Position numbers and translations under genes: made by a program. A stretch of 59,433 nt of DNA, taken from positions 1-59,433 of the forward strand of contig JANYFE010000107.1 in NCBI GenBank assembly GCA_025362795.1. Direction: 5' to 3'. Origin of the DNA: Rhodobacterales bacterium (lineage in GTDB: Bacteria; Pseudomonadota; Alphaproteobacteria; Rhodobacterales; Rhodobacteraceae). Under the pieces are notes generated by a model. The model was not told the DNA's origin, did no database searches, and was given only the letters and a program-made list of their open reading frames with translations. This document shows, in pieces, positions 188-5,410 of the stretch. Positions within the stretch are counted from its first letter, which is position 1, and each line of letters opens with the position of its first letter.

Positions 188-697
188 TCAGTCCGTCACG
201 GTGATGATTGTCCACATACCGTTCATGTAGTGCGCAGGAATATTGCAAAACAGGATGTATTTGCCGGGAGTCAGGTCCACCGTCAGTTTGCCCGTCTTGC
301 CCGGATTCAATTCGGACACTTCGCCCAAATGTTTGGCTTTATCTTCGTCAACCTTATAGTCCGCCGTGACGTAGGGCATCGTCGTGCTATCGGCTGGGAC
401 GGGCGACAGGATCATCTCATGCACGATGTCTTTGGAGCTGTTTGCGACTGCGAAGGTCACGGTACCAGCGTGGACGGTGGCCACATCGGTCTTAACCCCG
501 AGCATGGCCATTGTCATGTCGGCCCCCGCTGACCCCAAGCCCATCGGATGCGCGTCATCGGGCGTGCCCGAATCCGGCCCCTTGTCCCACAAGGTGACAT
601 TGACATTGGATACCTGTGCGGCAAACGCCGTTCCCGAAAGGGCGAGGTACAAACCGGCGATCAGCGCGGTTGTTTTGAGTGGTAGCAAAGTCATCAT
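188..697 (-). CDS. Secreted cupredoxin (sulfocyanin/plastocyanin-like blue copper protein)
   Basis: This 169-residue protein starts with a signal peptide (hydrophobic residues 10-20, probable cleavage after TAFA near residue 26), so it should act in the periplasm. The rest looks like a single cupredoxin fold. The type-1 copper ligands are His93 in VHEM and the C-terminal set Cys151-x4-His156-x4-Met161 in [12 protein letters not shown]. The family shuttles electrons or binds copper; the partner is not evident. Two adjacent ATGs (697 and 694) fit the signal peptide, whereas the longer frame from 766 would put 23 polar residues ahead of it. It is divergent from acpS and lies next to an IS3 terminus. 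The specific electron donor or acceptor is unknown. Confidence 0.8.
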
Positions 698-949
698 TTG
701 ATCCAGTGCTGGCTCGGGCATTGTTGCCCAGCCCCTTACCTGTGCCGTATTGCCGCTGGATTCCATAGGCTTAGGGTTGCGCTGCCTGAGTCTTCAGGCC
801 AACTGCAACCAAAGTTGCACGCGGCTTTCCGCTGCTCGGGCGCAGTCAGGGCAGCAGACCGCCGCTGGACAGGCAAGGGCTTGGTGACTAGCGTCACGCG
901 GGTCATTGCAACGGCTGTTCCGGGGCAGAATTCCAGCGAGCTATACGGC

Positions 950-1375: not shown

Positions 1376-1462
1376 TCCCTGCGGCACGCGGAAGCGTGCA
1401 AACCTTGACTCCCCTGCCCCGCCCGCGCATGTAGCGCCGCGAAACCTATGGAAAGATCAGAC

Positions 1463-2263
1463 ATGGCCAGCCGGACCGCGCCCGAAAACGGCATCCTTGA
1501 GACCATCAAGACCGTCGTTTACGCACTGCTGATCGCTGGTATTTTTCGCACGTTGTTGTTCCAGCCATTCTGGATCCCGTCGGAATCGATGAAAGACACC
1601 CTGCTGATCGGGGACTTCCTGTTCGTCAACAAGATGGCTTACGGCTACTCGCGCTATTCATGCCCCTATGCGCTGTGCCCGATTTCCGGCCGGATAAAAG
1701 TGCCTGGCATAAGTGGCGATCCGCAGCGTGGCGATGTCGTGGTATTCCGGCATCCGGTGAATGGCGAAGATTACATCAAGCGGCTGATTGGCTTGCCCGG
1801 CGACAAGATTCAGGTCAAGGACGGTATGCTATACATCAACGGCACGGAGGCGCCGCAGGTGCCGGCCGGGCAGTTTGAAGAGATCTACGAACCGCAAGGC
1901 TCGATGGGGAATTCGCCACGTTGCGAAAATGCCCCCGTTGGCGAGGGCGGAATATGCACGCGCAGCCGGTCGGTCGAGACGTTGCCGAATGGCGTCAAGC
2001 ATGACGTGCTGAACATCGACAAGAACGGCTATGCTGACAACACCGACATTTTCACGGTGCCTGAGGGCAACTATTTCTTCATGGGCGACAACCGCGACAA
2101 TTCGATGGACAGCCGGTACAGCCAGAACGCGGGCGGCGTGGGCTTCGTGCCTGCGGCGAACCTGATTGGCCGGGCGGACCGGATCATCTTTTCGTCCGGC
2201 GGCAAATCGCTGTTCTTTTTCTGGACCTGGCGTTCGGACCGTTTCTTCAAGGCGGTGGAGTGA
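1463..2263 (+). CDS. lepB: Signal peptidase I
   Basis: LepB removes signal peptides from Sec- and Tat-exported proteins at the periplasmic face of the inner membrane. This 266-residue copy has an N-terminal transmembrane anchor (about residues 12-34), the catalytic Ser42 in IPSESMKDTLL, and the general base Lys106 in [12 protein letters not shown]. Box E is present as [12 protein letters not shown]. The ATG at 1463 is preferred over the one at 1448 because GGAAAGA lies six bases upstream. A Cys pair (YSCPYALCP) sits in the beta-loop. Its stop is followed 32 bases later by a paralogous gene that lacks the Lys. Confidence 0.95.
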   Translation: MASRTAPENGILETIKTVVYALLIAGIFRTLLFQPFWIPSESMKDTLLIGDFLFVNKMAYGYSRYSCPYALCPISGRIKVPGISGDPQRGDVVVFRHPVNGEDYIKRLIGLPGDKIQVKDGMLYINGTEAPQVPAGQFEEIYEPQGSMGNSPRCENAPVGEGGICTRSRSVETLPNGVKHDVLNIDKNGYADNTDIFTVPEGNYFFMGDNRDNSMDSRYSQNAGGVGFVPAANLIGRADRIIFSSGGKSLFFFWTWRSDRFFKAVE

Positions 2264-2295: not shown

Positions 2296-3066
2296 ATGCG
2301 CCGTTGTCTGCTGGTGTTTGGCCTGGTCGCACTGATGCCTCTTCCTGCCATGGCCGAGGTTCGTCTTGACCGTCTGGTCTGGCGCACAACCGCACTGTTA
2401 TTAGAGATGACTCTTGGGCCAGCAGGTTATCGGCTGGTCTATCATCCCTACACGATCCCGTCGGAAAGTATGAAGCCGACACTGCTGGTTGGTGACTTTG
2501 TGCTGGTGCAATGGTTGGGACAGTCTTGCCGACGCGGGGATGTGGTGGTGTTCCGTCATCCGGTCAACGGGCTGGATTACATAGAGCGGCTGATCGGTCT
2601 GCCGGGTGACACGGTGCAAATGAAGGATGGGTTGCTGTACATCAACGGTGCTGTCGCCCCGCAAAAGCCTGAAGGTCAATTCGAAGAAATCTACGAACCA
2701 CAGGGGCCGTTGGGTAACAAGCCGCGCTGCCAGAATGCCCCAATCGGTCTGGGCGGAACCTGCACCAAATCGCGCGCGACCGAGACGCTGCCGAATGGGA
2801 TCCGACATGACGTGCTGAACATCGACGAGAACGGTTATACCGACAACACCGATGTGTTTACAGTGCCGCCGGCGATGTATTTCTTCATGGGTGACAACCG
2901 CGACAATTCGATGGACAGCCGGTATAGCCAGAACGCGGGCGGTGTGGGCTTTGTGCCTGCCGAAAACCTGAAGGGTCGGGCGGACTTCGTGCTGTTGTCG
3001 GCCGAAGGTAAGGGTTTGCCAGAGTCGCCGTGGCGTCCGGGCCGCTACTTTCAGGTCATCGAATGA
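2296..3066 (+). CDS. LepB-like protein lacking the catalytic lysine (probable pseudo-signal peptidase)
   Basis: This 256-residue protein is a tandem paralogue of the preceding LepB and is nearly collinear with it over the last 160 residues. It keeps the nucleophile Ser58 ([11 protein letters not shown]) and box E ([12 protein letters not shown]). The general-base position reads [12 protein letters not shown], so the Lys is Glu97 (GAG at 2584-2586; the paralogue has AAG). A Sec signal ending PAMA-EV (residues 1 to about 20) replaces the membrane anchor, and about 25 residues of the beta-loop before RRGDVVVF are missing. The ATG at 2296 gives that clean signal; a GTG at 2260 overlapping the lepB stop is the alternative. 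Its stop overlaps the rnc start (ATGA), so it is probably co-transcribed. Peptidase activity by the normal Ser/Lys mechanism is unlikely; the role is unknown. Confidence 0.85.
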
Positions 3067-3746
3067 AGTTGTCCGCCGACCTTGCCGCGTTTACGGCCCG
3101 GATCGGGCATGAATTTGCGCGTCCCGAACTGCTGGTGCAGGCGGTCACGCATGCGTCACTATCGTCGGCGACAAGGCCCGACAATCAGCGGCTGGAGTTT
3201 CTGGGCGACAGGGTGCTGGGATTGGTGATGGCCGAAGCCTTGCTGGGTGCCGACGGTACGGCGGCAGAAGGGTTACTCGCACCACGGTTCAATGCGCTGG
3301 TGCGCAAGGAAACCTGTGCCGATGTCGCCCGCGACATGGGATTGGGCGAAGTCATGAAGCTCGGCCGGTCAGAGATGATGTCGGGCGGTCGGCGGAAAGA
3401 GGCATTGCTGGGCGACGCATTGGAGGCGCTGATTGCCGCCGTTTACCTGGATGGCGGCTTCGGCGCGGCGCGCTCCATGATACTGCGGATGTGGGGCGGG
3501 CGGATCGCGGCGGTCGAACAGGACAGCCGCGACGCCAAGACCGCCTTGCAGGAATGGGCGCAGGCGCGGGGGATGGCTCCGCCGTCCTATGTGGAGGCGG
3601 CACGCGAGGGGCCGGATCATCAGCCGGTGTTCACGGTGCGGGTTGAGTTGGCCGACGGAACAGCGGCAACGTCAACAGCCGGGGCCAAGCGGCAGGCAGA
3701 GCAGATGGCGGCGCGGGCGCTACTTGATCGACTTACAGAGTCGTAG
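3063..3746 (+). CDS. rnc: Ribonuclease III
   Basis: RNase III cleaves double-stranded RNA in rRNA precursors, mRNAs and antisense duplexes. The protein is 227 residues. Its catalytic domain carries the signature [12 protein letters not shown] with Glu45 and Asp49, and the second acidic pair Asp118/Glu121 in [20 protein letters not shown] double-stranded-RNA-binding domain follows from about residue 157 ([14 protein letters not shown]). The ATG at 3063 overlaps the stop of the LepB-like gene by four bases. The last 14 bases overlap the convergent nuclease gene on the other strand. Rhodobacterales normally have era directly downstream; here it is separated by that inserted gene. Confidence 0.95.
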
Positions 3747-4296
3747 TCCCAGAAGCCGAGGGAGGCGGGAAACGTCCTTTATGCTTCGCGTCCACTCGCC
3801 AGAGTTTCTTGCGTATTCCAGCAGGCTCATACATCCGATACTTTCCACCGGAGAGTTTTCTCCAGTCTAAGGCAAGTCCCATTTTGACCATTTCAGCAGA
3901 AAGGTCGCGCCCATCCGGCAAGTAGCAGGTCGCTACGGTACGATCATAGCTGAGCGAACCATCTACGATGGCCCGAACTGACGATCCCCTGCACAATTCG
4001 GCCAATGCCCATTTTGCCTTGTTTCCCCATGGCTGGTCTAGTTCTGGGGCGTCGATACCAGCCAAACGTATCATGGTGTTAGCAATGACCAAAGTATCCC
4101 CGTCGATAACGTAGCAGCGTCCGACGATTGCTCTGTCAACTGTCGGTAACACTGTGGCAGGGTTGGAAATTGCGGTTGCAACCTGAACTAGTCTCGCGGC
4201 GACTACCGGTTCAAGATACCTGCTTGTTGCTTGCCGCGAGTTTCTCCGTCCGGGAGATGACCCGATCAGCCACGTCAACAGTCGAAAAATCGGCAT
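3733..4296 (-). CDS. Thermonuclease (SNase-like) family protein
   Basis: This 187-residue protein contains a staphylococcal-nuclease-like OB fold. Visible motifs are [25 protein letters not shown] with the family Arg and Glu, and [16 protein letters not shown] with the second Arg, followed by [11 protein letters not shown]. The family hydrolyses DNA or RNA with Ca2+. The first 55 residues hold a short hydrophobic stretch (FRLLTWLIG) but no convincing signal peptide, so export is uncertain. The gene is opposite in orientation to its neighbours and overlaps the rnc end by 14 bases. It also looks less GC-rich, which suggests later insertion into the rnc-era block. Confidence 0.8.
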
Positions 4297-4465: not shown

Positions 4466-5410
4466 ATGATCGAGGCCACGCTGCCCGGACAAGGCGAAGA
4501 CACCCGTGCGGGGTTTGTGGCGCTGATCGGGGAACCCAACGCGGGAAAATCGACGCTGTTGAACCGGATGGTGGGGGCCAAGGTTTCCATCGTCACCCAC
4601 AAGGTGCAGACGACGCGGACCCGTATTCGCGGCGTGGCGATGGAGGGCATGTGCCAGATCGTGTTTGTCGATACTCCGGGCCTGTTCAGGCCGCGCAGGC
4701 GGCTGGACCGGGCGATGGTGGCGGCGGCCTGGGGTGGGGCTGCGGATGCGGATGTGATCGTGCTGCTGATCGAGGCGCACCGGGGGCTGACCGGAGGGGT
4801 GGCGGCGATCATCGACACGATGAAGGATCGCATCCCGCAGGGGCAGCAGGTGGCGCTGGCGATCAACAAGATCGACCGGGTCAAGGCCGAGGTTCTGCTG
4901 GCGCTGGCGGCCAAGCTGAACGAGGCGTTTCCGTTTGCGGAGACGTTCATGATTTCGGCCGAAAAGGGCTATGGCGTAGACAAGCTGAAGGCTTGGCTGG
5001 CGGAGCAGTTGCCGCTGGCGGCGTGGTATTACCCCGAGGATCAGATTGCCGATCTGCCGATGCGGATGATTGCGGCGGAGATGACGCGGGAAAAGCTGAC
5101 GCTGCGGCTGCACGAGGAATTGCCGTATCAGTTGACGGTGGAAACCGAGGCCTGGGAAGATCAGCCGGACGGATCAGCGCGGATCAACCAGATCATCTAT
5201 GTGATGCGGGACGGCCACAAGGGCATCGTTCTGGGGAACAAGGGTGAGACGATCAAGTCGATCGGAACCGCCGCAAGGGCGGAGATTTCGGCGTTTCTGG
5301 AACGGACCGTGCATCTGTTCCTTGAAGTCAAGGTCCGCCCCGGTTGGCTGGAGGAGCCGGAGCGTTACAGGGAGATGGGGCTCGATTTCAAGGACGGCAA
5401 TGTGAGTTGA
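4466..5410 (+). CDS. era: GTPase Era
   Basis: Era is an essential GTPase that binds the 3' end of 16S rRNA and assists 30S maturation at the membrane. The 314-residue protein has the G1 P-loop GEPNAGKST (22-30), G3 DTPG (69-72), G4 NKID (134-137), and a C-terminal KH domain with VLGNKGETIKSIG. A ribosome-binding AGAGGAA precedes the ATG. Upstream lie about 170 bases without a gene, so it may have its own promoter now that rnc is separated from it. Confidence 0.96.
   Translation: MIEATLPGQGEDTRAGFVALIGEPNAGKSTLLNRMVGAKVSIVTHKVQTTRTRIRGVAMEGMCQIVFVDTPGLFRPRRRLDRAMVAAAWGGAADADVIVLLIEAHRGLTGGVAAIIDTMKDRIPQGQQVALAINKIDRVKAEVLLALAAKLNEAFPFAETFMISAEKGYGVDKLKAWLAEQLPLAAWYYPEDQIADLPMRMIAAEMTREKLTLRLHEELPYQLTVETEAWEDQPDGSARINQIIYVMRDGHKGIVLGNKGETIKSIGTAARAEISAFLERTVHLFLEVKVRPGWLEEPERYREMGLDFKDGNVS

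What the first reader, a model, noticed from the sequence alone, without database searches (positions are those of the whole stretch)
2296..3066. Tandem LepB paralogue with the general-base Lys replaced by Glu and the membrane anchor replaced by a signal peptide
Seen: two signal peptidase I genes sit head to tail. The second keeps the nucleophile motif IPSESM but reads [12 protein letters not shown] where the first has [12 protein letters not shown]. Codon AAG at 1778-1780 is matched by GAG at 2584-2586. In E. coli LepB this Lys (146) is the general base paired with Ser91. The second copy also has a Sec-type signal ending PAMA-E in place of the N-terminal membrane anchor and misses about 25 residues of the beta-loop, while the rest is highly conserved. 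Established: Ser/Lys dyads are needed for LepB catalysis. Inference: a retained pseudo-signal peptidase that may bind signal peptides or LepB itself, or a protease using a changed mechanism. The ATGA overlap with rnc suggests it is expressed.
Basis: partly seen in the sequence, partly recalled or inferred. Interest (0 to 1): 0.82.

Follow-up and report, generated by a model that had tools for sequence, protein, structure and literature searches.

The report
Disabled second copy of signal peptidase
Next to its normal signal peptidase gene this bacterium carries a second copy whose key catalytic lysine has become a glutamate, and related bacteria show that such disabled copies arose repeatedly and, in one genus, are kept by selection, which suggests a job other than cutting.

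Summary
Copy 2 (2296-3066) is a type I signal peptidase homologue with Glu (GAG 2584-2586) where LepB1 next door and E. coli LepB have the general-base Lys; nucleophile Ser and box E are intact. It is not a one-off: at least 32 of 394 family genomes searched hold such a second copy (LepB2). Of 34 LepB2 examined, 32 lie between lepB and rnc, 26 carry an N-terminal DUF805 membrane domain, 32 lack most of the loop missing in the window copy, 15 lack the Lys (Ala, Gly, Glu, Gln, Met) and 6 of those 15 lack the Ser too; 30 of 30 partner LepB1 keep both. In one genus 5 of 5 species keep a LepB2 without Ser and Lys under purifying selection (mean dN/dS 0.12). A tree puts the 31 LepB2 it holds, the window's included, in one clade, but AU tests do not reject the window copy being a duplicate of its own LepB1. 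Best reading: a pseudo-signal-peptidase that probably binds exported proteins or their signal peptides without cutting, comparable to SipA of Streptococcus pyogenes; the binding role is inferred. Slow decay of an idle gene remains possible for the window copy itself, for which no orthologue was available.

The parts
1448..2263 (+). lepB1, type I signal peptidase with intact Ser/Lys dyad ([18 protein letters not shown])
   Evidence: Pfam Peptidase_S26 1e-49, TIGR02227 2.4e-45 above cut-off; the genome search with this protein hit only this gene and copy 2
1778..1780 (+). AAG, general-base Lys of LepB1
2296..3066 (+). lepB2, signal peptidase paralogue with Lys to Glu (alternative start GTG 2260)
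   Evidence: Pfam Peptidase_S26 8e-39, TIGR02227 3.1e-37; AlphaFold2 model pLDDT 86.3 whose best solved matches are E. coli LepB chains
2296..2355 (+). signal-peptide-like N-terminus [20 protein letters not shown], in the place of the DUF805 domain of most LepB2
   Evidence: Kyte-Doolittle 2.05, AMA-E; pLDDT under 50 for residues 1-22; signal peptide by eye only
2371..2439 (+). helix 26-48, in the place of the LepB membrane anchor, weakly hydrophobic
2467..2469 (+). AGT, nucleophile Ser58 (box B IPSESM), kept
2584..2586 (+). GAG, Glu97 in the place of the general-base Lys (box D)
2890..2922 (+). box [12 protein letters not shown] (Ser278, Asp280, Arg282 equivalents), kept
3063..3746 (+). rnc, RNase III; its ATG overlaps the lepB2 stop
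   Evidence: TIGR02191 1.7e-64

Best explanation
Copy 2 is a pseudo-signal-peptidase: a member of a Rhodobacteraceae paralogue family (called LepB2 here) that arose beside lepB, usually with a DUF805 membrane domain fused in front and without the beta-loop, and that has lost the catalytic Lys several times. In the window the DUF805 part is absent, a signal-like N-terminus takes its place, and Lys is Glu, while Ser, box E and the pocket remain. Shown: the sequence changes, the family, repeated loss of the dyad, and constraint on a doubly dead copy in one genus. Inferred: it is made by translational coupling in the lepB-rnc operon, sits on the periplasmic side, cannot cleave because nothing deprotonates the Ser, and works by binding the signal-peptide end or C-region of exported proteins (or LepB1 itself) without cutting, as a chaperone, decoy or regulator of processing.
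For: S26 match and fold. 15 of 34 LepB2 without Lys, 6 of 34 also without Ser (which includes 3 found); 30 of 30 partner LepB1 with both. Ser278 equivalent lost in 8 of 15 Lys-less and 0 of 19 Lys-bearing LepB2, Ser90 equivalent in 6 of 15 and 0 of 19 (Fisher p 0.00035 and 0.0037, not corrected for kinship). In the genus of G167, 5 of 5 species have LepB2 with Ser and Lys both replaced by Gly; ten pairs give dN/dS 0.10-0.21, mean 0.123 (S26 part 0.122), LepB1 0.02-0.07. 31 LepB2 incl. the window form one clade (100/95, all of 200 bootstrap trees) with at least 7 changes of the Lys state. The window copy keeps 52 of 72 columns conserved in 53 LepB1-type rows (mean of the 19 Lys-bearing LepB2 49.8, of the 15 Lys-less 43.3) and 9 of 10 pocket positions recalled from E. 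coli LepB work. Third codon positions of the two window copies are about 45% identical in many stretches while the proteins stay 65-90% alike there; dN 0.21, dS 1.26 over 203 codons.
Against: AU tests do not reject that the window copy is sister to its own LepB1 (p 0.27) or falls within the LepB1 of its genus (p 0.31); its middle and box E parts are most like LepB1 of its own genus. No orthologue in its genus, so constraint on this copy was not measured. The kinship-aware test of Lys against Ser278 had only 3 pairs. 19 of 34 LepB2 keep Lys, so the ancestral role may be catalytic. Lys-less copies are on average more decayed, and one relative has only a remnant. No data on expression or binding.
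Confidence: 0.6

Rival explanations
1. Redundant duplicate on the way out: LepB1 does the work, copy 2 has lost its Lys under relaxed selection and will decay.
For: Patchy: 1 of 16 genomes of its genus, at least 32 of 394 in the family; a remnant in G102 and worn copies in G380, G329, G104; LepB2 end branches are long.
Against: Intact frame overlapping rnc; 52 of 72 conserved columns kept, no fewer than the average Lys-bearing LepB2; a doubly dead LepB2 elsewhere is constrained.
Confidence: 0.25
2. Copy 2 is an in-genus duplicate of LepB1 that lost the loop and the anchor on its own and is no member of the LepB2 clade.
For: Highest identity is to its own LepB1 (67% over 217 columns); middle and box E parts nearest to LepB1 of the genus; AU p 0.27.
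Against: Starred clade with LepB2 and sister to L049 LepB2 (99/89); same place and same loop loss as the others; KPTL/LVGD as in LepB2; third positions near saturation. A mosaic by gene conversion would explain both sides (26 of 26 residues and 22 of 26 codons identical in box E, against a mean codon identity of 0.71 to LepB1 of other genera and 0.68-0.88 within the genus: suggestive only).
Confidence: 0.2
3. An active peptidase in which Glu or another group takes the place of Lys.
For: All else in the site is kept in the window copy; a second Glu in G380.
Against: The position is Ala, Gly, Gln or Met in 13 of the other 14 Lys-less copies and the Ser is gone in 6 of 15, so no new base is selected for; a carboxylate is a poor base for a Ser hydroxyl (inference); the loss of activity of E. 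coli LepB Lys145 mutants is recalled, not looked up.
Confidence: 0.05
4. Sequencing or assembly error (one base, G for A).
For: One base; one assembly; no second strain and no reads.
Against: 15 of 34 homologues lack the Lys, so loss is common in this family; frame and overlaps are intact.
Confidence: 0.03

Closest known systems
SipA of Streptococcus pyogenes (signal-peptidase-like pilus assembly protein; PMC4049620, passages read; PDB 4n31)
   Same: S26 fold without the dyad (Asp48/Gly85 for Ser90/Lys145, Ser278 equivalent also changed); the paper reports no peptidase activity, a conserved peptide-binding cleft and an essential role in pilus polymerisation. 4n31 is a match of the window protein by sequence (8.5e-5) and by fold (2.8e-6).
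   Different: SipA lies in a pilus cluster of a Gram-positive; copy 2 lies in lepB-rnc of an alphaproteobacterium, keeps the Ser, and no pilus link was looked for.
SpsA of Staphylococcus aureus (PMC12445088, passages read)
   Same: Second type I signal peptidase homologue lacking catalytic residues (two, by that review), beside an active SpsB.
   Different: Described there as dispensable; no DUF805 part is mentioned in the passages seen; the window copy lacks one residue only.
LepB, type I signal peptidase (E. coli 1b12, 3iiq)
   Same: Fold, box B Ser, box E, most pocket positions.
   Different: General-base Lys is Glu, loop of 25 residues missing, anchor weakened.
Catalytically dead paralogues that activate the live enzyme, such as trypanosomatid deoxyhypusine synthase (PMC3663545, listing and start of abstract only)
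   Same: Dead paralogue kept beside a live one.
   Different: No evidence here that LepB2 binds or activates LepB1.

Membership tests
Active type I signal peptidase (LepB) | Peptidase S26 domain and fold | tested here: met
Active type I signal peptidase (LepB) | Nucleophile Ser in box B | tested here: met
   Ser58
Active type I signal peptidase (LepB) | General-base Lys in box D | tested here: not met
   Glu97
Active type I signal peptidase (LepB) | Box E Ser/Asp/Arg | tested here: met
Active type I signal peptidase (LepB) | N-terminal membrane anchor | tested here: inconclusive
   helix present, hydrophobicity 0.74 against 1.83; new N-terminal segment 2.05
Active type I signal peptidase (LepB) | Cleaves signal peptides | not testable with these tools
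   needs an assay
LepB2 family as defined here | Lies between lepB and rnc, same strand | tested here: met
   32 of 34 incl. the window; G130 is not linked to its lepB1, G196 has no rnc in the stretch held
LepB2 family as defined here | S26 domain without the beta-loop | tested here: met
   32 of 34 lack most of it; G225 and G343 keep some
LepB2 family as defined here | N-terminal DUF805 | tested here: not met
   absent in the window; present in 26 of 34 (24 of 30, 2 of the other 4)
LepB2 family as defined here | Groups with the other LepB2 in a tree | tested here: inconclusive
   clade 100/95, but AU p 0.27 and 0.31 for a LepB1 origin
Non-catalytic signal-peptidase-like proteins (SipA type) | S26 fold with the catalytic dyad broken | tested here: met
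   Lys lost, Ser kept; 4n31 among the fold matches
Non-catalytic signal-peptidase-like proteins (SipA type) | Peptide-binding cleft conserved | tested here: met
   9 of 10 positions, recalled from E. coli LepB; by sequence only
Non-catalytic signal-peptidase-like proteins (SipA type) | Member of a pilus/sortase cluster | tested here: not met
   neighbours acpS, lepB1, rnc, era
Non-catalytic signal-peptidase-like proteins (SipA type) | No peptidase activity, assembly role | not testable with these tools
   needs experiments

The most novel reading that the evidence does not exclude
Rhodobacteraceae hold an undescribed family of DUF805-fused signal-peptidase paralogues that has turned from protease to non-cutting signal-peptide or client binder many times over, with the window copy caught just after the switch: one residue changed, pocket intact, membrane domain traded for a secretion signal, so that it would work as a soluble periplasmic pseudo-signal-peptidase.
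Probability: 0.35. Interest if true: 0.78.

Novelty: new variant of a known kind. Interest (0 to 1): 0.6.

Why it matters
Type I signal peptidase is essential and a drug target, and non-catalytic relatives are known mainly from Gram-positives (PMC4049620, PMC12445088, passages). A family in which the dyad breaks again and again beside an intact LepB1, with a dead version under clear constraint in one genus, gives a natural series to ask what a signal peptidase does apart from cutting, and gives DUF805, a domain without known function, a first partner domain to test.

Tried and rejected
Recent-duplication reading: third codon positions argue against it, AU tests do not settle it. Gene conversion in box E: only suggestive, because box E codons are alike among LepB1 in general. 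Kinship-corrected link of Lys and Ser278: too few pairs. More congeners for rate tests: genera of G127, G201, G170 and G130 hold one genome each. Literature: searches listed no report of an alphaproteobacterial pseudo-signal-peptidase or a DUF805-signal-peptidase fusion; only the held open-access library was searched, and most papers were seen as listings. PMC9427106 holds both words but not in the main text held. A first quick tree missed 5 LepB2 and 3 outgroup rows that my cutting pattern did not find; one search put the 5 LepB2 back, not the 3 outgroup rows. The three LepB2 are not in the tree. No complex was modelled.

The draw of 394 genomes is nearly one per genus.

Full report
What is there. 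The stretch holds acpS (950-1375), lepB1 (1448-2263), lepB2 (2296-3066, or from GTG 2260), rnc (3063-3746), a nuclease gene on the other strand (3733-4296) and era (4466-5410). Alignment to E. coli LepB 1b12 puts the Glu on the catalytic Lys. Box B Ser58 and box [12 protein letters not shown] are intact. The genome (3.84 Mb, 108 contigs) gave no further lepB match with LepB1 as query.

Shape. AlphaFold2 gives a signal-peptidase fold for copy 2 (pLDDT 86.3, pTM 0.80; residues 1-22 under 50), with a helix 26-48 running into the first strand; the best solved matches are E. coli LepB chains, and SipA 4n31 is among the 23 with E up to 0.001. That helix is poorly hydrophobic and a signal-like segment precedes it, so the product may be secreted or held by the first segment. 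The G204 LepB2, with DUF805, was modelled too (pLDDT 86.9).

A family, not a singleton. A search of 394 genomes of the family, repeated with a LepB2 alignment, plus 80 of them again with a broader one, and loci from a scan of public genomes, led to 34 LepB2 genes: 32 in the 394 genomes and 2 (L049, L063) from the scan. 32 of 34 lie between lepB1 and rnc on one strand; G130 has its LepB2 on another contig than LepB1 and G196 shows no rnc in the stretch held. 34 of 34 match Peptidase_S26 and 26 of 34 match DUF805 (24 of 30, 2 of 4). 32 of 34 lack most of the loop; G225 and G343 keep part. G102 has only an 81-residue remnant in this place. Other tandem lepB pairs exist in which both copies are ordinary LepB with Lys (G007, G011, L056, L057, L061, G220, G260) and are not counted as LepB2. 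One same-genus locus (L033) is identical to a public Pseudorhodobacter MAG contig (L077), so the window's genus is probably Pseudorhodobacter.

Catalytic residues. Lys is kept in 19 of 34 and replaced in 15: Ala 7, Gly 4, Glu 2, Gln 1, Met 1. Ser is replaced in 6 of 34, each also without Lys (G167 and G329 Gly, L063 Gly, G170 Thr, G343 Glu, G104 His). The Ser278 equivalent is lost in 8 of 15 Lys-less and 0 of 19 Lys-bearing copies. Fisher p values (0.00035; Ser90 0.0037) ignore kinship; a kinship-aware test had 3 pairs and says nothing. 30 of 30 partner LepB1 keep Ser and Lys. On the tree the Lys state changes at least 7 times among 31 LepB2, though LepB2 branches are long and the inner order is unsure.

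Selection. In the genus of G167, 5 of 5 species have LepB2 with Gly for Ser and Gly for Lys. From the Met, 338 codons, ten pairs give dN/dS 0.10-0.21 (mean 0.123; DUF805 half 0.128, S26 half 0.122), with 257 of 338 residues invariant; LepB1 gives 0.02-0.07. So a LepB2 that can hardly be a Ser/Lys protease is kept there. This is one genus; four other genera tried had one genome each.

The window copy. It keeps 52 of 72 columns that are at least 95% conserved in 53 LepB1-type rows, as many as Lys-bearing LepB2 (mean 49.8) and more than Lys-less ones (43.3), and 9 of 10 recalled pocket positions. Compared with its LepB1, third positions are about 45% identical in many windows while protein identity is 65-90% there. 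The tree joins it to L049 LepB2, which has DUF805 and Lys (99/89), within the LepB2 clade (100/95). Against this, AU tests do not reject a LepB1 origin (p 0.27, 0.31), and its middle and box E parts are nearest to LepB1 of its own genus while the ends are not: a mosaic is likely, its history not settled. None of the other 15 genomes of the genus showed a LepB2 (G002 had no hit, G014 a partial one).

Reading. The family facts favour a non-catalytic role that does not need the dyad, and the window copy is a mild, perhaps recent case. The mechanism proposed (binding of signal peptides or client proteins without cutting, as chaperone, decoy or regulator) rests on the kept pocket and on the SipA precedent (PMC4049620, passages read), and is inference. 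A dead LepB2 could also act on LepB1. The idle-gene rival is real for the window copy, since remnants and worn copies exist.

Novelty. Non-catalytic signal peptidase homologues are known (SipA, SpsA). In seven searches of the held papers I saw none in alphaproteobacteria and no DUF805 fusion. New variant of a known kind.

Noticed in passing
3733-4296 (-): A staphylococcal-nuclease-like gene sits between rnc and era on the other strand; homologues turn up in loci of several other genera (such as L016, L139, L063, L042, L018, L182, L056, L212).
   Followed up: partly
L016 348-1199 and 1195-2052; L015 213-1094 and 1160-1948: Two same-genus genomes (G007, G011) have a different lepB tandem: a first copy with VMVKRLIALPGE and a second ordinary one, both with Ser and Lys.
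   Followed up: partly
L262 1735-1977: G102 has an 81-residue remnant of a signal peptidase C-terminus between lepB and rnc, probably a decayed LepB2.
   Followed up: partly
L194 (G130): The one LepB2 found away from lepB1: contig 3 against contig 25 of the same genome; Lys is Ala.
   Followed up: no
L215 2599-3570: A second Lys-to-Glu LepB2 (G380), with a broken-looking N-terminus and worn box D and E.
   Followed up: no
2878-2942 against 2072-2136: Box E stretch of the two window copies: 26 of 26 residues and 22 of 26 codons identical, with a 32-base exact match, a possible short gene conversion.
   Followed up: partly
188-766 (-): A cupredoxin-like protein, below Pfam's cut-off, lies upstream of acpS on the other strand.
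   Followed up: no
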